Source of the DNA: an uncultured Phascolarctobacterium sp.
GTDB taxonomy: Bacteria > Bacillota > Negativicutes > Acidaminococcales > Acidaminococcaceae
Direction of reading: 5' to 3'
DNA: 64,000 nucleotides
Assembly (NCBI GenBank): GCA_949295115.1
Contig: CASFJU010000003.1
Coordinates: forward strand, 1-64,000
Shown: piece by piece, positions 2,750 to 13,570 of the stretch
Layout: each line of letters begins with the position of its first letter
Position numbering within the stretch: position 1 is the first letter of the stretch
The notes under the pieces: model-generated
What the model saw: only the letters and a program-made list of their open reading frames with translations
The model's database searches: none
Told to the model about the DNA's origin: nothing
Translations under genes and position numbers: made by a program

Positions 2750-4293
2750 ATGAAAACCGACAACCAGGAAATGATTTTAGTTATTGACTTCGGCGGTCAG
2801 TACAACCAGCTGATTGCGCGCCGCGTAAGGGAAAGCGGTGTTTACTGCGAAATTATGTCTTACAGGCAGAGCCTTGATAAAATAAAAGCCAAAAACCCCA
2901 AAGGCATTATCTTTACCGGCGGGCCTAACAGTGCTTACCTTGAGGATTCGCCCACTATCAGCGCGGAAATTTACGAACTGGGCGTGCCTGTACTTGGCAT
3001 CTGCTACGGCAGCCAGCTGATGATGCACATGCTGGGCGGCCATGTCTGCAAAGCGCCGGAGCGCGAATACGGCAAAACGCTGGTTGATTTTGATACGGAA
3101 AGCCTGCTGTTTAAGGGCATCCCGGCACAGAATGTTTGCTGGATGAGCCATAACGATTATATTGAAACCGCCGCGCCCGGCTTTAAAATTACGGCGCACA
3201 CCCCCAACTGCCCGGTAGCGGCGGCAGAGGACGCAAGCCGCGGTTTGTACTGCGTGCAGTTCCACCCCGAAGTGCTGCACACCGACAACGGTACCAAAAT
3301 GCTGAGCAACTTTGTTTATAACGTGTGCGGCTGCGCCGGAACGTGGAAAATGGACAGCTTTGTTGAAGAAACGGTGCAGGAGCTGAAAGAAAAAATCGGC
3401 GACGGCAAAGTGCTGTGCGCTTTAAGCGGCGGCGTGGACAGCAGCGTCTGCGCGGCAATGCTGGCCAAAGCCATCGGCAAGCAGCTTACCTGCGTATTTG
3501 TCTTCTGCGCAAAAACGAACGCGAAGAAGTTTGCAGCGTATTCGGCGAAGGCGGCCAGTTTGATATTAACTTTATCTGCGTGGACGCGCGCGAACGCTTT
3601 TACGGCAAGCTGGCAGGCGTAACCGCGCCGGAAGGCAAACGTAAAATCATCGGCGAAGAATTTATCCGCGTGTTTGAAGAAGTAGCCAAACAAATCGGCG
3701 CCGTCGATTATCTGGCACAGGGCACCATTTACCCGGACGTTGTTGAAAGCGGACTCGGCGGCGAATCGGCAACGATTAAGAGCCACCACAACGTAGGCGG
3801 ACTGCCCGACTTTGTAGATTTTAAAGAAATTGTTGAACCTTTGCGTGACCTGTTTAAGGATGAGGTTCGCCAGGCAGGGCGCGAGCTTGGACTTCCGGAA
3901 TATCTGGTAACGCGCCAGCCGTTCCCGGGACCGGGCCTAGCCATCCGCATTATCGGCGACGTAACGGCAGAGAAGGTTGCCATTGTGCAGGACGCCGATT
4001 ATATTTACCGCGAAGAAGTTGACAAACTGCCGCTGGCGCAGCGCCCCAGCCAGTATTTTGCAGCGCTGACCAATATGCGCAGTGTCGGCGTAATGGGCGA
4101 CGAACGTACTTACGATTATGCCATTGCCCTGCGTGCCGTAACCACCACCGACTTTATGACGGCCGAAGTAACCATGCTGCCGCCAGAAACCATCACCACC
4201 GCAGCCAACAGAATAGTAAACGAAGTAAAACACATCAACCGCGTGCTGTTTGACTACACAACCAAACCGCCCGCAACGATAGAGTTTGAGTGA
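2750..4293 (+). pseudogene. guaA: GMP synthase (glutamine-hydrolysing), interrupted by a ~10-nt deletion
   Basis: Two overlapping frames together give a nearly complete GMP synthase, which aminates XMP to GMP. The first (ATG 2750, AGGAGG site) carries the class I glutaminase: GICYGSQ with the nucleophile Cys, FHPE with the catalytic His, then the PP-loop SGGVDSS. The second frame resumes at LLRKNEREE (about 3502) and runs through [20 protein letters not shown] and the C-terminal dimerisation domain ending [10 protein letters not shown]. Between them the usual VDHGLLRK is reduced to V-LLRK: about 10 nt are missing at 3500-3502, so the frame changes and three to four residues are lost. Frameshifting alone cannot restore the missing residues. 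It may be a real null allele or an assembly error. Confidence 0.88.
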
Positions 4294-4380
4294 TTGCTTA
4301 CTTACTGGTCAGTTAGTTAACGTAGTAGTACAATAATTATGTAAAAGCGATAAGCGGAGTTCTTTTGAACACGCAAAAAA

Positions 4381-4426
4381 GCAATACAAAAACCCAAGAG
4401 TGGCAGCTCTTGGGTTTTTGTATTGC
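4381..4426 (+). terminator. Long-stem terminator after guaA
   Basis: A perfect 20-bp inverted repeat (4381-4400 against 4407-4426) with a 6-base loop TGGCAG. The stem contains A- and T-tracts, so it can act as an intrinsic terminator in either direction. It marks the left boundary of the AT-rich island. The preceding 4294-4380 shows no gene. Confidence 0.8.
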
Positions 4427-4461
4427 CATTATTTTGCTTAATTATATGTGCGTAAAGTATA

Positions 4462-4490
4462 TTGTATAGTTATGAAAAATTGTGTAAAAT
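4462..4490 (+). promoter_or_regulatory. Candidate promoter for mrr
   Basis: TTGTAT (4462-4467), 17-base spacer, TAAAAT (4485-4490), in AT-rich DNA about 110 bases ahead of the mrr start. In such AT-rich sequence chance matches are common, so this is tentative. Confidence 0.4.
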
Positions 4491-4601
4491 AAAGTAAATA
4501 GTTTAAGCAGATTTATTTTAGTAAATTTTAAAACTAGAAAGCATATGTTGTTAAATTCATTTTTTCATTATAACTAAAGCATTTTGCAAGGGAGACAAAA
4601 A

Positions 4602-5513
4602 ATGACTGTACCTAAATATTTTGAAATGCATAAACCGTTCTTAGAATTTTTAAAAGATGGAAATCCGCATACATTAAAAGAATTAAAGCTTTTAATAAGC
4701 CAATATTTTCATTTGAAAGATGAAGATTTAACTGAAATGTTACCGAGTGGACGCCAAACTTATTTTACTAATAGACTGGGGTGGGCAAGTACATATTTAA
4801 AAAAGGCTGGTTTAATAACAAGCCCATCCAAGGCAACTTTTGTTATAACCGATGAAGGACGCAAAGTGTTAGCTGAAAATGTAGCTGTTATTGATGCGAA
4901 TTATTTGATGAAGTTTCCTTCTTTTAGAAAATTTCAAAATGTTGATACAGATAATATTCAATCAGTTCAACCAAAAGAAATCAATGATGATGAAACACCG
5001 GATGATGCATTTGAAGATGCTTTCAGAAAAATAAATAAAAGTTTATCTGATGATTTGTTATCAGAAATAATGAAGTTAACACCGGAAGCTTTTGAAAAAA
5101 TGGTTCTGGATTTGATGCGTAAAATGGGATATGGTACTTTTGAAAATGCTGCTCATACAACTGCGGTGACAGGTGACGAAGGTATTGATGGAATAATAAT
5201 GGAGGATAAGCTTGGGTTTGATTTAATTTACATACAAGCTAAAAGATGGGGAGAAGATCATACGGTAGGTCGTCCTGAGGTACAAGCTTTTGTCGGGGCT
5301 ATTGCAGGTAAAGGTGGAAAAGGGTTATTCGTAACTACATCTAAATTTAGTAAACAAGCTGTTGAGTATGCTAAAAACCAACATATTATTTTGTTGGATG
5401 GTGAAAAACTTACAAACTTTATGATTGAACACAATTTTGGTGTTTCAACAAAGAAAGTATTTGAAATAAAAGTAATTGACAGTGATGTATTTAATGATTA
5501 TAAGGATGAATAA
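4602..5513 (+). CDS. mrr: Mrr-type restriction endonuclease (type IV, modification-dependent)
   Basis: 303 residues, the size of E. coli Mrr; ATG at 4602 with GGGAG ten bases upstream. The N-terminal winged-helix (Mrr_N) domain covers about 1-95 (FLKDGNPHTLKELK, then YLKKAGLI), and the C-terminal Mrr_cat PD-(D/E)xK-like domain about 155-275, with GDEGIDGII (catalytic Asp), YIQAKRW (Q-x-K) and VGRPEVQAFVGA. The family cleaves DNA carrying methylated adenine or cytosine. It is much more AT-rich than flanking housekeeping genes, which suggests transfer. It is followed by its own terminator, so it is a separate unit from the methylase operon that comes next. Confidence 0.92.
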   Translation: MTVPKYFEMHKPFLEFLKDGNPHTLKELKLLISQYFHLKDEDLTEMLPSGRQTYFTNRLGWASTYLKKAGLITSPSKATFVITDEGRKVLAENVAVIDANYLMKFPSFRKFQNVDTDNIQSVQPKEINDDETPDDAFEDAFRKINKSLSDDLLSEIMKLTPEAFEKMVLDLMRKMGYGTFENAAHTTAVTGDEGIDGIIMEDKLGFDLIYIQAKRWGEDHTVGRPEVQAFVGAIAGKGGKGLFVTTSKFSKQAVEYAKNQHIILLDGEKLTNFMIEHNFGVSTKKVFEIKVIDSDVFNDYKDE

Positions 5514-5549
5514 ATATAGTATACAAAAACTGATAAATTATTAATTTGC

Positions 5550-5583
5550 AAAAAGATTTGGCGTTATTGCGTCAAATCTTTTT
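5550..5583 (+). terminator. Intrinsic terminator after mrr
   Basis: Stem AAAAAGATTTGGCG (5550-5563) pairs with CGTCAAATCTTTTT (5570-5583) around a TTATTG loop, followed by T-rich sequence. Confidence 0.8.
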
Positions 5584-5668
5584 ATTTCTTTTGTATGTTT
5601 AAGATTGTTATTATTGTTTAATTCTAATATAATAATATAGACATAAGATTTTTTGTTTGGAGGAAAAC

Positions 5669-7426
5669 ATGCACCCGTTTTTAAAGTGGGCTGGTGGCAA
5701 AACACAGCTTTTAGATGAAATAAGAAAATACTATCCTTTCATCACTAAAAACATTACTAAATATGCTGAACCATTCATTGGCAGCGGTGCTGTTTTGTTT
5801 GATGTTCTTTCGCATTATACGCTGAAAGAAATATATATAAGCGATGTTAACAGAGAGTTAATCAACACCTATACGATTATTCGCAATAATATCAATGAAC
5901 TTGTAGAGTTATTGACAAAATATCAAAAAAAGTATTGGGGAATGAATTCATCTGAACAAAAAGAATATTATTTAAAACAACGAGACAGGTTTAATAATCT
6001 GAAAATAAACGGAAATACAAACGAAAATATCGAAAAAGCTGCATTAATGATCTTTTTAAATCGAACTTGTTTTAATGGACTTTATCGTGTTAATACCAAA
6101 GGCTTGTTTAATGTCCCGATAGGTTCTTATAAAAAACCTTTAATATGTGATGAGGAAAATTTAAGAGTAATATCAGAAAAATTACAAAATGTAAACATTA
6201 TATGCGGAGACTATAAATCATCGGCAGATTTTATTGATCAAAATACTTTTGTGTATTTTGATCCTCCGTATCGTCCAATTACTGAAACGGCTAATTTTAC
6301 TTCATATACGGAAAATATATTTGGAGATCAAGAACAAATTAAACTGGCTGAATTTGTTAAAAAAATTACGGGTAAAGGTGCGTTAATTCTTATTAGTAAT
6401 TCAGATCCCAAAAACACCAATATCAACGATACTTTTTTTGATAACCTTTACAAAGACTACGATATAAAGAGAGTAGAAGCTAATCGTATGATAAATTGTA
6501 ACGGTGAAGCACGCGGAAAAATTAATGAATTACTGATTTCAAATTTTAAAGGAGAAATGGGAATGGAAAACAGAGATTTTATTGTATGGTTAGCACATTT
6601 TAAAAAGAGCATTGCTAATTATGAATATTATACAGATTTCAAAAAAGTTTATCATAACGTTAATGAAATGAAAGTAGAATTAAATATTTTAAATTCCTTG
6701 ATTGGTTCTAAAAGCATAGAAGAAGATTTTGAAAATTTATTGTCTAAATATCCTGATGTTTTAAAATGTATACCAATTCTTTTGGCCGTACGTTCAAATG
6801 AAATTGATGCTATTGATGAAGAGGGTTCTTTTACTTATAATTTTGACGAGCCTAATCTTACAATAGAACAATATAAAAAATTTATGCGCAAGACAGGCTT
6901 GTTTGATTTAATTCAAAATCATATAATTAACAATCTTGTCGATTATGTTACAGGTGTAGAAACAGGCCTGGATTCCAATGGACGCAAAAATCGCGGCGGC
7001 CATTTAATGGAAAATTTAGTAGAAAGTTTTATTAAAAAAGCCGGTTTTATTAAAGACCAAACCTATTTTAAAGAAATGTATATCAGCCAAATTACTCAAA
7101 AATGGGGTATAGATTTATCTGCTATTTCTAATCAAGGCAAAATGGAAAAACGTTTTGATTTTGTCATAAAAACCGACAATATGATTTATGGTATTGAAAC
7201 GAACTTTTACAGCAGCGGCGGCAGCAAGTTAAATGAAACTGCCCGTAGTTATAAAACTCTTGCGTTAGAAACAGATACCATAAATGGTTTTACCTTTGTC
7301 TGGTTTACTGATGGCAAAGGCTGGAAAAGTGCCAGAAACAATCTTGAAGAAACCTTTGATGTCATGAAACATATCTACAATATTAACGATATGGAAAATG
7401 GCATAATTACAGAGGTTTTTAAATAA
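5669..7426 (+). CDS. Dam-type adenine methylase fused to a DpnII-type restriction endonuclease
   Basis: 585 residues; ATG at 5669 (MHPFLKWAGGK) with GGAGG upstream. Residues 1 to about 295 are a complete Dam/DpnM-family N6-adenine methyltransferase: WAGGK, PFIGSG (SAM-binding, 35-40), DPPY (198-201), INELLISNF at the usual C-terminus. From Met299 (MENRDFIVWLAHFKKS) the protein is a full DpnII-type endonuclease of about 287 residues, near the size of the free-standing enzyme, with FDFVIK and YGIETNF as likely PD-(D/E)xK-type active-site parts. In known DpnII systems these are separate genes and the site is GATC; the same specificity is inferred. The join keeps a ribosome-binding site and start codon for the nuclease, and losing one T from a T5 run ahead of an ancestral TAA would explain the fusion. 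Confidence 0.88.
   Translation: MHPFLKWAGGKTQLLDEIRKYYPFITKNITKYAEPFIGSGAVLFDVLSHYTLKEIYISDVNRELINTYTIIRNNINELVELLTKYQKKYWGMNSSEQKEYYLKQRDRFNNLKINGNTNENIEKAALMIFLNRTCFNGLYRVNTKGLFNVPIGSYKKPLICDEENLRVISEKLQNVNIICGDYKSSADFIDQNTFVYFDPPYRPITETANFTSYTENIFGDQEQIKLAEFVKKITGKGALILISNSDPKNTNINDTFFDNLYKDYDIKRVEANRMINCNGEARGKINELLISNFKGEMGMENRDFIVWLAHFKKSIANYEYYTDFKKVYHNVNEMKVELNILNSLIGSKSIEEDFENLLSKYPDVLKCIPILLAVRSNEIDAIDEEGSFTYNFDEPNLTIEQYKKFMRKTGLFDLIQNHIINNLVDYVTGVETGLDSNGRKNRGGHLMENLVESFIKKAGFIKDQTYFKEMYISQITQKWGIDLSAISNQGKMEKRFDFVIKTDNMIYGIETNFYSSGGSKLNETARSYKTLALETDTINGFTFVWFTDGKGWKSARNNLEETFDVMKHIYNINDMENGIITEVFK
6548..6565 (+). promoter_or_regulatory. Internal ribosome-binding site and start codon at the methylase/endonuclease junction
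   Basis: AAAGGAG (6548-6554) lies eight bases before an in-frame ATG (6563-6565) that begins MENRDF, the expected N-terminus of a free-standing DpnII-type nuclease. A second in-frame ATG at 6557 is too close to the site. Translation starting here would give the nuclease alone. Confidence 0.65.
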
Positions 7427-8172
7427 TGGTCAAAAAAATAAATACGTGGCAGCCTGAAGATTTTGAACTGGAAATGACAACGCATTGGTCATTTCCAAAA
7501 CGAGGCAATTGGGCAACCCATGACGCAAAATGGCGTGGTAACTGGTCGCCTTATATACCGCGCAATATTTTGCTGCGCTATTCGCAGGAAAATGATTTAG
7601 TATTAGACCAGTTTGCCGGTGGTGGAACTACACTAGTAGAAGCAAAATTGTTGAAAAGAAATATTATAGGTGTTGACGTTAACGATTTTGCGCTTAACAG
7701 ATGTAAAGAAAAAACAAATTTTGAATATCCGGACGCAACAGGTAAGGTTTATATTCGAAAAGGGGATGCAAGACATTTAGATTTTATTCCAAATGACAGT
7801 ATTGATCTTATCTGTACTCATCCACCTTATGCCAACATTATAAAATATAGCGAAGATATAGAAGGTGATTTATCACTTTTAAAAGTGCCGGATTTTTTAG
7901 ATGAAATGAAAATGGTAGCTGATGAAAGCTACCGTGTTTTAAAAAAAGATAAATTTTGTGCGATACTTATGGGAGATACACGTCAAAAAGGGCATGTTAT
8001 ACCAATGAGTTTTAAGGTAATGGAAATTTTTCAAAATGCCGGGTTTAAATTAAAAGAAACTATAATAAAAGAACAACATAACTGTCGCGCAACAGGCTAT
8101 TGGAAAATTAACAGCGTAAAATACAATTTTTTGCTATTGGCTCACGAGTATTTGTTTGTGTTCAAGAAGTAA
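7426..8172 (+). CDS. DNA methyltransferase (N4-cytosine/N6-adenine type)
   Basis: 248 residues; the ATG overlaps the TAA of the fusion gene by one base (TAATG), so translation is coupled. SAM-binding motif DQFAGGGTTLVEAKLL lies at about 63-78, and the catalytic loop is THPPY near residue 135, a variant of D/S-PPY. GNWSPYIPRNIL precedes motif I. Its motif order differs from DpnA, the second methylase of classic DpnII operons, where DPPY comes first, so it is not a plain DpnA. It most likely protects the same or an overlapping site as a companion methylase; the target base cannot be settled from sequence. AT-rich like the rest of the island. Confidence 0.82.
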   Translation: MVKKINTWQPEDFELEMTTHWSFPKRGNWATHDAKWRGNWSPYIPRNILLRYSQENDLVLDQFAGGGTTLVEAKLLKRNIIGVDVNDFALNRCKEKTNFEYPDATGKVYIRKGDARHLDFIPNDSIDLICTHPPYANIIKYSEDIEGDLSLLKVPDFLDEMKMVADESYRVLKKDKFCAILMGDTRQKGHVIPMSFKVMEIFQNAGFKLKETIIKEQHNCRATGYWKINSVKYNFLLLAHEYLFVFKK

Positions 8173-8185
8173 GGAGGAGATGTTT

Positions 8186-9916
8186 ATGGAATTAAAAGCA
8201 GTATCGTCAAGTATAGATGATGTTTTAAGACTTAGAAGGAAATATGTAATTCCAAGATTTCAAAGAGAATTTTCTTGGGACAAAGATGAGTTAATAGAAC
8301 TTTTTGATGATTTAATAGAAAATATAATTGTAAAAGACGGACAAATGTTGGCCAATGATTATTTTGTTGGTTCGTTAGTTCTGGTTGGTGATGATGATGA
8401 TACAACAAAAATAGAAAGATTTGTTGTAGATGGGCAGCAAAGGTTAACAACATTTACAGTAGCTTTTGCGGTTTTAGCACAAAAATTTAAGGATTTAAAC
8501 GAGACGACTTTAAGTGAAATTACTCATTTAAATGTTTTAGGTAAAGATAATGATGGTGTTTCATATGAAAAATTAGTAAATGAAAATCCTAAACCGTTTT
8601 TCCAAAAGAGAATACAAAGTAAAAATATTGATTTTAAAATTAAGCCGACGACTCAAGAGGAGAAAAGATTATTATATGCGTATAATTTTTTTGATAAACA
8701 ATTAAGCAAAGAATCTTTATTAGAGAGCATTAGAGAACACAATTGTTATAAAGGCGAATTGAATTATATAGATGCTTTAAAAGCGTTTAGAGACCAAATT
8801 TTGAAATGCAAAGTTATTTATGTTACTGTAAAATCATTTGATGATGCATATACAATATTTGAAGTTTTAAATGCCAAAGGCAAAGATCTAACTCCTGTTG
8901 ATATAATTAAAAATTCTATTTTTAGCATATTAACCGATCAAGTTCCTATTGATACAGCAGATGAAAAATGGAAATTTGCTAAAAATGAGATAAAAAAATG
9001 TAATTCAGTAGAATATAATACCTTTTATAGACATTATTGGATTTCAAAGTATTGTTTGTCAACGAGTCGCAATTTAGTAAAAAACTTTGAAAAACATATA
9101 AAAAAAGATATCGAAAGTTATTCTAAATTTATAGACGATTTAGCGGATGCTGCCAGTGATTATTCAAAAATAGTCGTTTCTAATGCAAATGATTGGAAAC
9201 AGCCGGAAGAGTTATCAACTTTTACTACATTATCATCATTAAATATTTTTAATGTTACACAAGTAAGAGTATTTCTTTTAGGCTTATTTGATGCCAAGAA
9301 GAGAAATGTAATTACTCATAAAAATTATAGAAAAATTTTAAATTATTTAGAGCATTTTCATTTTATTTTTACTGCAGTATGTTCAAGTAGACCTTCTGGT
9401 TTGGAACGAAGATATTCGTTTTATGCAAGAAAATTAAGGCATTGTAATACTAAAGAAGATAGTGAACGTTGTATTAACGATCTAATTACTGATTTAAGTG
9501 AATCTTTACCTGAATATAATGTATTTGAAAGTGCATTTAAAAATATTGTTTATACATCAATAGAGGAAAAGGATAAAAAGTTAGTTCAGTATATTCTAAA
9601 AAAAATAGAAACTTATTATTCTACTCCTGAACTTAAGCCAAATTCTTTTACTATTGAACATATAATGCCAGAATCAAGTAATAGAACAAAAATAGGAATG
9701 ATAGGCAATTTATTACCATTAGGAGACAAAATAAATAGCAATATTCAAGATAAAGATTTTAAAATAAAGTTAACTAAATATAAAGAATCACAATATGTAA
9801 CTGTGAGAAAATTTATAGAAGAATATCGTGATACAGAAGAATGGACAGAAGAGTTGATTCAAAAAAGAACTATTGATTTAGCTAAAATTTTATATGAAAA
9901 TATTATAGAAGGTTGA
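8186..9916 (+). CDS. DUF262/DUF1524 protein (GmrSD-type modification-dependent nuclease)
   Basis: 576 residues; ATG at 8186 eight bases after AAGGAGG, fourteen bases past the methyltransferase gene, so probably the last gene of that operon. The N-terminal DUF262 ParB/Srx-like domain shows [15 protein letters not shown] (about 24-38) and [10 protein letters not shown] (about 83-92), the NTP-binding/hydrolysis motif of GmrS. The C-terminal DUF1524 HNH-like nuclease has [10 protein letters not shown] and IGNLLPLG. Both halves are in one chain, as in the single-polypeptide GmrSD enzymes that cut glucosylated hydroxymethylcytosine DNA. Full length and apparently intact. The modified base it recognises is not known. 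Confidence 0.87.
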
Positions 9917-9936
9917 ATTTCAAAGGAGGCAACCCC

Positions 9937-10257
9937 ATGATTGTTACGACTACACAAAATGTTGAAGGCAGGCAGATTGCCGAGTATAAGGGCATTGTTT
10001 TTGGTGAAGTGGTGTCCGGCGTAAATTTTGTTAAGGATATGTTTTCGAGCATAACCGATATTTTTGGCGGGCGCAGCAGCACTTATGAAAACGAGCTTGA
10101 AGAAGCACGCCAAAAAGCCATTGAAGAAATGTGCGGACGTGCCGAAAGATTAGGCGCTGACGCCGTTGTCGGTGTCGATGTTGATTACGAAGTTTTGGGC
10201 AAGGAAAACGGTATGCTTATGGTCAGCGTAAGCGGCACGGCAGTAAAATTAAAATAA
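9937..10257 (+). CDS. YbjQ/UPF0145 family protein
   Basis: 106 residues; ATG at 9937 preceded by AAGGAGG. The YbjQ-like (heavy-metal-binding domain, DUF74) signature is visible: early [21 protein letters not shown], then [29 protein letters not shown]. The family forms pentameric rings of unknown role. Base composition is closer to the housekeeping genes than to the AT-rich neighbours, so it may be an older resident now within the island. Twenty bases after the DUF262 gene; read-through transcription is possible. Confidence 0.85.
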
Positions 10258-10264
10258 TATGGTA

Positions 10265-10290
10265 AAAGGCAGCCTTCAGGGCTGCCTTTT
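10265..10290 (+). terminator. Intrinsic terminator after the ybjQ-like gene
   Basis: AAAGGCAGCC, a TTCA loop and GGGCTGCCTTTTT form a compact GC stem with a T-tail. Between here and the helicase start (10434) nothing else was recognised. Confidence 0.88.
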
Positions 10291-10433
10291 TGTGTGCAAA
10301 CTAAAATCAGGGAACTTTTGCGCAAAAAAATTAACAATTTGTTCCATAAAGTGAACTTGTATAAAAGTTTGTTGCTAATAAAACTGGCTTTGTGATAAGA
10401 TTATTTTATAAAACATATTTAATGAGGTTTATT

Positions 10434-13400
10434 ATGAAAACAGGATTATACGAGCAGCCAATCAATAAAAAACTTGATAAAGAGTTAAAAGAACTAACAG
10501 ATAATTTTGCTGTCGAAAAAGAGCAAATCGACGATGAGGAAGCTGCGGGTATTTTATCTAAATATGTTAAAAACGTTGTTGAACAAAGCCTGCGTAACAT
10601 TAGTGATAGCGGAAACGATTTGAACGAACAGCTTGCACTTGTTAACAAAGTAATTAATGCTATTCAAGCAGAAACTAATACAGATATAGCTGAACTGGCA
10701 CTTGCTAATGATGAACAACTGTTGTCGGTAATATATAAGACGAATACTGCGCAAGCAGTTAACCAAAATATTAAAACAATTCGTCCGGTAACATCAATAG
10801 CTCAAAGCTCACTTTTTACTGGTGCTGTGCACGAACCGCAAATGTTTAGCGAGCTGAAAAAAGAAATTTTTTCATGCGATAGCATTGATATGTTGGTTTC
10901 GTTTATAAAATGGAGCGGGTTACGCCTTTTGATTGATGCGTTGAGGGAGTTTACCGATAAAGGTGGTAAATTACGCGTAATTACAACTTCTTATATGGGC
11001 GCAACAGACATTAAAGCTATTAACGAGCTTGCTAAATTGCAAAATACCGAGATTAAAGTTTCTTACGATACGAAACGGACGCGCCTGCATGCAAAAGCCT
11101 ACATTTTTTACCGTGAAACAGGTTTTACTACTGCTTATGTAGGTTCTTCCAATCTTTCTAATGTTGCAATATCCAGTGGTCTGGAATGGAATTTAAAAAT
11201 TTCCAAGCAGGACCAACCAGAGGTTTTGCAAAAGATTGCAGCGACTTTTGATAGTTATTGGAATTCTAACGAGTTTGAATTTTATGATGTAGAGCAAGAG
11301 CCGCGTTTGGCGAAAGCCTTAAAACTGGAGCGCACGCATACTGAAGACACTAACTTTTTTGCATTTGACATCAACCCTTACCCGTACCAACAGGAAATTT
11401 TGGATAAGTTAGAGGCGGAGCGTACTATTCGCCAAAATTTTAAAAATTTAATTGTGGCGGCTACGGGTACAGGTAAAACAATTATCGCTGCGCTGGATTA
11501 TAAAAGGCAATGTGTAAATAATCGCAAGCCACGTTTACTTTTTGTAGCGCATCGTGAAGAAATTTTAAAACAAAGTTTAAATACTTTTAGAGTTGTTTTA
11601 AAAGACGCTAATTTTGGAGATTTATTTGTTGGTAATCACGTGCCGTCAAGTTTAGATCATTTATTTATATCGGTACAAACCTTTGACGCTAAAAATTTGA
11701 CAACGCAGATAACGCCAGATTTTTATGATTATATAATCATCGACGAAGTTCATCACGCACCGGCGGATACTTATAAAAACATTTTAGAGCATTTTAAACC
11801 GAAGATTTTATTAGGTTTAACGGCAACGCCAGAACGTATGGACGGCAGAAGCATTTTGCCGTATTTTAATAATAAAATAACAGCAGAAATCCGCTTGCCG
11901 GAAGCGATTGAGCGTAAATTGTTATGTCCGTTTCAGTATTTTGGTGTGACGGATAATGTTGATTTAAGTAATTTGCGTTGGGAGCAAGGCGGTTACAATA
12001 AGGATGAGCTTTCTAAAATTTATACAATATCAACATTGTATGCTAAAAGTCGCGCAGATTTAATAGTTAGATCGGTTTTTAAATATGTTACCGATATCGA
12101 CGATGTTAAAGGCTTGGGCTTTTGCGTAGCTAAAGAACATGCTCACTTTATGGCTGATTATTTTAATGAGAGCAATATTCCGTCACTTTGTTTAACTGGC
12201 GATAGCCCCAAAGAAGAACGCGAAAGTGCTAAAAATAAATTGCTTAACGGTGAGTTGCGTTTTATTTTTGTAGTTGACCTTTATAATGAAGGTGTCGATA
12301 TTCAAGAAGTTAACACAATTTTATTTTTGCGTCCGACGGAATCACTTACAATTTTTTTGCAGCAACTTGGGCGTGGTTTGCGTTTGGCAGAAGGCAAAGA
12401 ATGTCTGACTGTTTTAGATTTTATCGGGCAAGCCAACAAGAAATACGATTTTGAAATTAAGTTTAAAGCCTTGCTTGCTAATACTGAAAGAAATATCGGC
12501 GTTGAAATAAAAAACGGTTTTCTATCTGCCCCGAAGGGCTGTTATATACAGCTTGAGAAAAAGGCGCAGGAATATGTGCTGAACAATATTAAAGCAGGTT
12601 TTGACCGCAGAGATGGTTTGGTGGCGCGTATTGCCAGCTTTACAGAAGATACTGGCAAAGAGCTAACTTTAACAAATTTTGCAGAGCATTATGAACTTAA
12701 TTTGCAAAGCATTTATAAAAAAGGTTTTGCTTTTGCACGCTTATGCGTGATGGCTGGGGAGCGTTTTGATTTTAATGAGACGTTAGAAACAGATAAATTT
12801 GTTAAAGCTTTAGGGCGTGTGGCGTTAATTGATTCACGTCGTTTAATAGAGTTTTTGACTAATACCTTTGCTAATTTGGATAGCATTAATTTTGATGATT
12901 TAACGCCGTTAGAAAAACGTATGCTGCGTATGTTTCAGTATACTATTTGGCAAGCTGATTATGACGCTTGCGGTTTTACAAATCCGTTAGACGGTTTGCG
13001 AGAAATTAAAAGCAGCCCAGTTTTATTTGCCGAACTGCTTGAAGTTTTAAATTATAACTATAACAAAATTGATTTTATTGATAAAGCTGTAAACATCGGC
13101 TTTGATTGTCCGATTGATTTGTATTGCAGTTATTCGCGCGACCAGATTTTTGCTGCGCTTGATGTTAACAACCCGCTTGCAATCCGCGAAGGCGTAAAAT
13201 TTGTAGCAGATAAAAATTTGGATGTACTTTTAAACACGCTTAATAAATCAAGCAAGTATTATTCGCCAACGACGATGTATAATGATTATTCTATTAACGA
13301 ATGGTTGTTCCATTGGCAGACTCAAAGCACGACAAGTGCAAGTTCCCGAACAGGTCAGCGATATATTCATCACAAAGAGATGGGCACAAAGGTTTTGTTG

Positions 13401-13570
13401 TTTGTGCGTGAGAACAAGCAGGACATGTTTGGCAACGCAGCAACATATACTTTTTAGGCACGGCAAATTATGTTAGCCATGATGGCACAAATCCAATGAA
13501 CATAATTTGGAAATTAGATAACCCGATACCTGCAAAATTCTTAAAGAAAACTAATAAACTTGTCATCTAA
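10434..13570 (+). pseudogene. PLD-nuclease/superfamily II helicase (DUF3427 type), frameshifted near its end
   Basis: ATG at 10434 (MKTGLYEQPINKK) seven bases after GAGG. The open frame gives about 1007 residues and stops at 13455-13457; the next 113 bases encode the missing tail in the -1 frame (FLGTANYVSHDGTNPMNIIW to LKKTNKLVI), ending at TAA 13570. One extra T in the T5 run at 13451-13455 restores the frame. Order of domains: phospholipase D-like nuclease with RLHAKAYIF (H-x-K, about 219) and GSSNLSN; SF2 helicase with Walker A ATGTGKT (about 345), DEVHHAP (about 435), LTATPER (about 460) and QQLGRGLR (about 645); then DUF3427. Such fusions are common in defence islands. Loss of 38 C-terminal residues may or may not inactivate it. 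Confidence 0.85.

What the first reader, a model, noticed from the sequence alone, without database searches (positions are those of the whole stretch)
5669..7426. Dam methylase and DpnII-type endonuclease in one polypeptide, with a retained internal start
The sequence shows a full Dam-type methylase joined in frame to a full DpnII-type nuclease at residue 299, where AAAGGAG and ATG remain. Classic DpnII systems encode these separately. A one-chain enzyme would couple cutting and protecting activities, and internal initiation could still supply free nuclease, giving two products from one gene. The companion methylase (7426-8172) is also not the usual DpnA.
Basis: partly seen in the sequence, partly recalled or inferred. 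Interest (0 to 1): 0.78.

Follow-up and report, generated by a model that had tools for sequence, protein, structure and literature searches.

The report
Fused GATC-cutting and GATC-protecting enzyme
In three closely related gut Phascolarctobacterium genomes, the protective methylase and the DNA-cutting enzyme of a DpnII-type (GATC) restriction system, normally made from two genes, have become one protein; the fusion is real and rare, and a second fusion that arose separately occurs in Staphylococcus phages.

Summary
ORF 5669-7426 (585 aa) is an uninterrupted Dam/DpnM-type methylase (residues 1-293) joined in frame to a complete DpnII endonuclease (299-585). It is not an assembly error: two sibling-species assemblies carry the same fusion (98-99% protein identity, no indels), the three copies lying at two genomic sites, with purifying selection on both halves and on the companion methylase. 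The closest unfused relatives end the methylase ...SNF-stop at the junction, so one base change (lost T, or stop TAA to AAA) made the fusion. It is rare: 3 of 88 near-full-length DpnII domains in about 1,600 genomes, all this cassette. An independent Dam-DpnII fusion, without the internal start, occurs on an S. aureus plasmid and in eight viral contigs (seven intact); trees require two origins. The internal ATG (residue 299) keeps the second-strongest Shine-Dalgarno of 22 in-frame start codons, in all three copies, so free nuclease is plausible but unproven. The companion methylase is indeed not DpnA. Likely reading: a mobile, natural Type IIC-like version of a DpnII/MboI-type system, probably with a second, nuclease-only product. 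New variant of a known kind; activity and GATC specificity are inferred from homology.

The parts
5669..7426 (+). Fused gene, 585 aa: Dam-type methylase + DpnII-type endonuclease
   Evidence: Open frame; Pfam/NCBIfam domains; same fusion in L002 and L003
5669..6547 (+). Methylase half, residues 1-293 (FIGSG motif I at 36-40, DPPY motif IV at 198-201)
   Evidence: TIGR00571 1-292; best solved relative DpnM 2dpm
6548..6562 (+). Junction: former stop position and Shine-Dalgarno AAAGGAG of the endonuclease gene, now read as K-G-E-M-G
   Evidence: Comparison with unfused relatives ending ...SNF-stop
6563..7426 (+). Endonuclease half, residues 299-585, with the retained internal ATG at 6563
   Evidence: PF04556 304-581; SD energy -8.7 kcal/mol, second of 22 in-frame start codons
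7426..8172 (+). M2, second methylase (248 aa, THPPY), start overlapping the stop of the fused gene (TAATG)
   Evidence: PF01555; PADLOC PDLC03376 E 3e-142; 70-83% identity to M2 of L004, L007, L008, L009, L012, L018, L057
5601..8173 (+). Mobile unit: the only stretch that L002 shares with this locus (97.6%)
   Evidence: blastn; GC 0.32 against 0.52 in the rest of the window

Best explanation
This is a DpnII/MboI-type restriction-modification system (gene order methylase, endonuclease, second methylase) in which one base change at the methylase stop codon fused the first two genes. Main product: a 585-aa chain whose N-terminal half methylates adenine in GATC and whose C-terminal half, probably after dimerising, cuts unmethylated GATC, an architecture of the Type IIC kind. 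If, as in orthodox systems, the methylase works as a monomer and the nuclease as a dimer, newly made chains should protect before they can cut, which would suit a cassette that moves between genomes. The preserved internal start probably adds some free 287-aa nuclease, and M2, whose start overlaps the stop of the fused gene, adds further methylation. Shown: the fusion, its presence in three genomes and two sites, purifying selection on all three domains, an intact internal start signal. Inferred: activity, GATC specificity, order of action, second product.
For: One open frame with two complete domains; same fusion in three assemblies, no indels; non-synonymous changes 8 of 25 and 11 of 32 against about 0.77 expected under neutrality, p 1.8e-6 and 2.8e-7, and each half significant alone; fused cassette found at two different sites; methylase half groups with unfused L007/L008, whose methylases end at the junction; independent intact Dam-DpnII fusion in Staphylococcus phages and a plasmid shows that this domain order is tolerated and maintained; internal SD second only to the gene's own start and kept in all three copies. 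Delay-by-assembly idea for Type IIC: PMC12707154. Engineered RM.Eco29kI fusion was active in both functions: PMC3039593.
Against: No activity, product or methylation data. Only three closely related copies, so retention of the internal start may be lack of time rather than selection. GATC avoidance is genus-wide, also in genomes without the cassette, and so says nothing about this enzyme. Free nuclease from the internal start would partly undo the coupling.
Confidence: 0.7

Rival explanations
1. The fused frame is incidental: the nuclease that matters is the 287-aa protein from the internal start, and the long chain works mainly as a methylase with an idle tail.
For: The original start signal of the nuclease gene is intact and strong; the fusion is only one base change old.
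Against: An independent fusion without any internal start stays intact in Staphylococcus phages, so a fused nuclease half can be maintained in its own right.
Confidence: 0.2
2. Recoding restores separate products: a -1 slip of the ribosome at A-AAT-TTT reads TAA and frees the methylase, so that fused and separate methylase coexist.
For: The string AAATTTT has the X-XXY-YYZ form in the reading frame and the -1 frame meets TAA at once; kept in all three copies.
Against: The string is inherited from the ordinary SNF-stop ending; the local fold is not unusual (z -1.14); the Shine-Dalgarno-like element lies after, not before, the site.
Confidence: 0.05
3. The nuclease half is dead or dying and the gene is in effect a GATC methylase.
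For: Fusion can cost activity: engineered RM.Eco29kI restricted 100-fold less than the separate enzymes (PMC3039593).
Against: Nuclease half is full length, keeps the residues invariant across 16 relatives and is under purifying selection (p 0.0055 and 0.0026).
Confidence: 0.04
4. Sequencing or assembly error that removed a stop codon.
For: The same contig has a 10-bp deletion breaking guaA that the siblings lack, so its sequence may not be perfect everywhere.
Against: Two other assemblies from other samples have the identical fused frame with their own silent changes around it, one of them at the junction.
Confidence: 0.01

Closest known systems
DpnII / LlaDCHI / MboI GATC restriction-modification systems (PF04556 endonuclease with Dam-type methylase)
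   Same: Both main domains are of these families, full length, with a second methylase gene beside them
   Different: Methylase and nuclease are separate genes there (LlaDCHI: L061); the second methylase of DpnII/LlaDCHI is of the DpnA type, here it is a different family
Unfused M-R-M2 systems of gut Firmicutes and Fusobacterium (L007, L008, L009, L012, L057)
   Same: Gene order or gene set, methylase 54-70%, nuclease 66-81% and M2 74-83% identical; these are the direct relatives
   Different: Stop codon between methylase and nuclease; L007 also has a small ORF between them and L057 an extra ORF before M2
S. aureus phage/plasmid Dam-DpnII fusion (WP_001286806.1; L058, L115-L121)
   Same: Same two domains in the same order in one chain (552 aa)
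   Different: Separate origin (about 31% identity), no internal start at the junction, no M2 beside it on the plasmid
Type IIC/IIG single-chain enzymes, in particular BtgZI (PMC4081073)
   Same: Methylase and nuclease in one chain; BtgZI is also described as alpha-class methylase first, nuclease second
   Different: BtgZI recognises an asymmetric site and cuts at a distance; most others are nuclease first with a gamma-class methylase
RM.Eco29kI, engineered fusion (PMC3039593)
   Same: Orthodox Type II R and M joined by removing the stop between them; the paper predicts natural examples
   Different: Engineered, nuclease first, different families; here natural, methylase first

Membership tests
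DpnII/MboI-type II restriction-modification system | Dam/DpnM-type alpha-class adenine methylase | tested here: met
   TIGR00571 1-292, E 1.3e-86; DpnM 2dpm best solved relative
DpnII/MboI-type II restriction-modification system | DpnII-family endonuclease (PF04556) | tested here: met
   PF04556 304-581, E 1.2e-111
DpnII/MboI-type II restriction-modification system | Methylase and endonuclease as separate polypeptides | tested here: not met
   One open frame in three assemblies; whether a free nuclease is also made is unknown
DpnII/MboI-type II restriction-modification system | Second methylase of the DpnA type (DpnII, LlaDCHI) | tested here: not met
   M2 is THPPY, motif I before IV; only short weak matches to DpnA relatives
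DpnII/MboI-type II restriction-modification system | Methylation and cleavage of GATC | not testable with these tools
   Inferred from both domain families; needs an assay or a methylome
Type IIC (combined R and M in one protein) | Endonuclease and methylase domains in the same chain | tested here: met
   definition from PMC4081073
Type IIC (combined R and M in one protein) | Both activities present in that chain | not testable with these tools
   Both domains complete and under purifying selection; no biochemistry
Type IIC (combined R and M in one protein) | Recognition module shared by both activities, cleavage away from the site | not testable with these tools
   Two complete, separately derived domains suggest two recognition surfaces, which would differ from typical IIC/IIG; inference only
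Two products from one gene by internal start | In-frame internal start codon with a good Shine-Dalgarno | tested here: met
   ATG 6563, -8.7 kcal/mol, second of 22; -8.7 and -8.4 in the other two copies
Two products from one gene by internal start | Detected short product | not testable with these tools
   Needs proteomics or ribosome profiling

The most novel reading that the evidence does not exclude
A naturally arisen single-chain GATC restriction-modification enzyme that makes two functional products from one gene: a coupled methylase-nuclease and, from an internal start, a free nuclease, whose ratio sets when a newly entered cassette begins to cut.
Probability: 0.4. Interest if true: 0.6.

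Novelty: new variant of a known kind. Interest (0 to 1): 0.42.

Why it matters
Orthodox Type II systems are expected to give rise to single-chain enzymes by simple gene fusion; this was shown by engineering (RM.Eco29kI) and predicted in nature. Here one base change has done it for the DpnII family, with related unfused systems for comparison, a cassette that has moved in fused form, and an independent second case in Staphylococcus phages. That gives natural fused and unfused versions for testing whether fusion changes how safely a restriction system establishes in a new host. It also shows that a database name such as 'DpnII family endonuclease' can hide a methylase.

Tried and rejected
Assembly error: rejected, three assemblies agree. 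Fusion as a one-site oddity: rejected, L002 carries it at another site. Phage or plasmid source of this very cassette: no close fused match in phages, plasmids or viral contigs. GATC avoidance as proof of activity: rejected, since genus members lacking the cassette avoid GATC equally and the cassette itself is not depleted. Single-piece tblastn hits on Psychrobacter, Fusobacterium and Staphylococcus sp. IVB6181 looked fused but have stops between the halves, as do L004-L006. A first protein alignment of all halves together (A1) misaligned methylases onto nucleases and was replaced by A3. An alignment of guaA with L110 in the wrong orientation was discarded and redone with blastn. The M2 structure prediction was too poor to use (pLDDT 52). 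Literature searches found no published natural Dam-DpnII fusion, but the library is partial and REBASE is not held.

Full report
WHAT IS THERE. Window 5669-7426 is a single open frame of 585 aa. Its first half is a complete Dam/DpnM-type adenine methylase (TIGR00571 residues 1-292, E 1.3e-86; PF02086 7-275, E 5.8e-62), its second a complete DpnII endonuclease (PF04556 304-581, E 1.2e-111). The methylase half matches the solved DpnM (2dpm) best, by sequence (E 1.4e-57) and by fold of the predicted model; the junction (297-301) is a low-confidence linker in a moderate model (mean pLDDT 72.8). The nuclease half has no solved relative by sequence. The next gene, 7426-8172, overlaps the stop (TAATG) and encodes a second methylase.

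IT IS REAL. The genome (1.7 Mb, 28 contigs) has one copy. Two sibling genomes hold the same fusion: L002/G005 (uncultured Phascolarctobacterium MAG) and L003/G002 (Acidaminococcaceae MAG), 98-99% identical in protein, with 26 and 33 base differences in 1755 and no indel. In L003 one silent difference lies in the junction itself (AAA to AAG). Changed codons are mostly silent (8 of 25 and 11 of 32 non-synonymous against about 0.77 expected under neutrality; p 1.8e-6 and 2.8e-7), also for each half and for M2 taken alone. So the fused frame is old enough to have accumulated changes and is maintained by selection.

HOW IT AROSE. In unfused relatives the methylase ends S-N-F-stop at exactly this place: AATTTTTGA (L008), AATTTCTAA (L007), AATTTTTAA (L027), AATTTTTAG (L032). 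The window has AATTTTAAAGGAG. Loss of one T from TTTTTAAAGGAG, or change of TAA to AAA in TTTTTAAGGAG, gives it; the data do not choose. Unfused nuclease genes begin at the position of residue 299 or just after. Several relatives (L004, L005, L006, Fusobacterium L057, Psychrobacter L059) have both genes in one frame parted by a single stop, so such fusions need little.

HOW RARE. Surveys of the class, the phylum, a Bacteroidota set and a Bacilli set, plus genomes behind fetched loci (about 1,600 genomes), gave 88 near-full-length DpnII domains by my count of the tables; only the three copies of this cassette lie in a frame longer than 340 aa. In plasmids one other fusion appeared: S. aureus p19-00012_1, 552 aa, WP_001286806.1, annotated only as DpnII-family endonuclease, with both Pfam domains. 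It recurs in eight viral contigs, seven intact, one of them at 87% identity, and one frameshifted. Trees of the methylase and nuclease halves each require two origins of fusion in all bootstrap trees (some rows have long branches and the nuclease tree is poorly resolved, but in the methylase tree the Phascolarctobacterium copies group with unfused L007 and L008, support 100/99). The Staphylococcus fusion has no ATG or Shine-Dalgarno at its junction and no M2 beside it on the plasmid.

INTERNAL START. AGGAG at 6550-6554 lies 8 nt before ATG 6563. Duplex energy with the 16S tail is -8.7 kcal/mol, second only to the gene's own start (-9.3) among 22 in-frame start codons (next -5.3); -8.7 and -8.4 in the other two copies. 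This is the old start of the nuclease gene, still usable. Three closely related copies cannot show that selection keeps it. A -1 slip at A-AAT-TTT would read TAA and free the methylase, but the string is inherited from the ordinary ending and no unusual structure follows it.

COMPANION METHYLASE. M2 (THPPY, motif I before motif IV) is 70-83% identical to M2 of unfused systems in L004, L007, L008, L009, L012, L018 and L057, and only weakly similar, over short stretches, to the DpnA type of LlaDCHI (L061) and of methylase-methylase-nuclease loci. PADLOC has a Type II methylase model for it (PDLC03376, E 3e-142).

CONTEXT. L002 shares only 5601-8173 with this locus (97.6%), so the fused cassette has moved as a unit. 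Its GC is 0.32 against 0.52 around it. A housekeeping stretch differs by about 4% between the three carriers, the fused gene by 1.5-1.9%. In the window the cassette lies in an AT-rich defence island between guaA and nnrD with Mrr, GmrSD-type and PLD-helicase Type IV proteins. Outside the island GATC occurs 7 times against 118 expected, but at expected frequency in the cassette; the avoidance is genus-wide, also in genomes without the cassette. So the lineage has long been under selection against GATC and this copy looks like a recent arrival. Avoidance has been reported for orthodox Type II sites and not for Type IIC sites (PMC4687349).

MECHANISM AND STATUS. Best reading: a natural single-chain methylase-nuclease derived from a DpnII/MboI-type system, probably active as methylase at once and as nuclease after dimerising (the assembly-delay idea for Type IIC is from PMC12707154), with possible extra free nuclease and with M2. 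Fusion, distribution, selection and start signals are shown; activity, specificity and coupling are inferred. By architecture it meets the Type IIC definition (PMC4081073), where BtgZI is the noted methylase-first case. An engineered fusion of Eco29kI genes kept both activities, with weaker restriction (PMC3039593). I found no published natural Dam-DpnII fusion, in a partial library without REBASE. Verdict: real, rare, a new variant of a known kind.

Noticed in passing
window 2750-4293: guaA (GMP synthase, only copy found in this genome) is split by a 10-bp deletion that removes the DHG motif and shifts the frame; siblings G002, G005, G004 and G001 have it intact. A true loss or an assembly flaw.
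   Followed up: partly
whole window and sampled genome contigs: Very strong GATC avoidance across the genus (observed/expected 0.04-0.18), also in genomes without the DpnII cassette; GGCC is depleted too (0.42-0.55). Cause not identified.
   Followed up: partly
window about 4300-13560; G001:C2:308411-316017; G004:C3:97460-102956: The stretch after guaA looks like a defence hotspot in the genus: Mrr, the fused system, GmrSD-type and PLD-helicase proteins here; DNA methylase genes after guaA in G004 and G001, and a degenerate second copy of the guaA 3' end in G001.
   Followed up: partly
L058 2986-4644 and L115-L122: Staphylococcus phage/plasmid Dam-DpnII fusion (WP_001286806.1) annotated only as an endonuclease; one copy (L122) is frameshifted.
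   Followed up: yes
window 10392-13457: 1021-aa PLD-helicase-DUF3427 protein with a strong match to a Type IV restriction model (PDLC03659, E 5.7e-221); blastn between this locus and L003 skips this stretch, so it is absent from L003's island.
   Followed up: no
L057 4750-5580: In Fusobacterium vincentii an extra 276-aa ORF of unknown function lies between the DpnII endonuclease and M2.
   Followed up: no
L007 about 4900-5150: A small ORF beginning MICKKDHRY lies between methylase and endonuclease genes in the closest unfused system.
   Followed up: no
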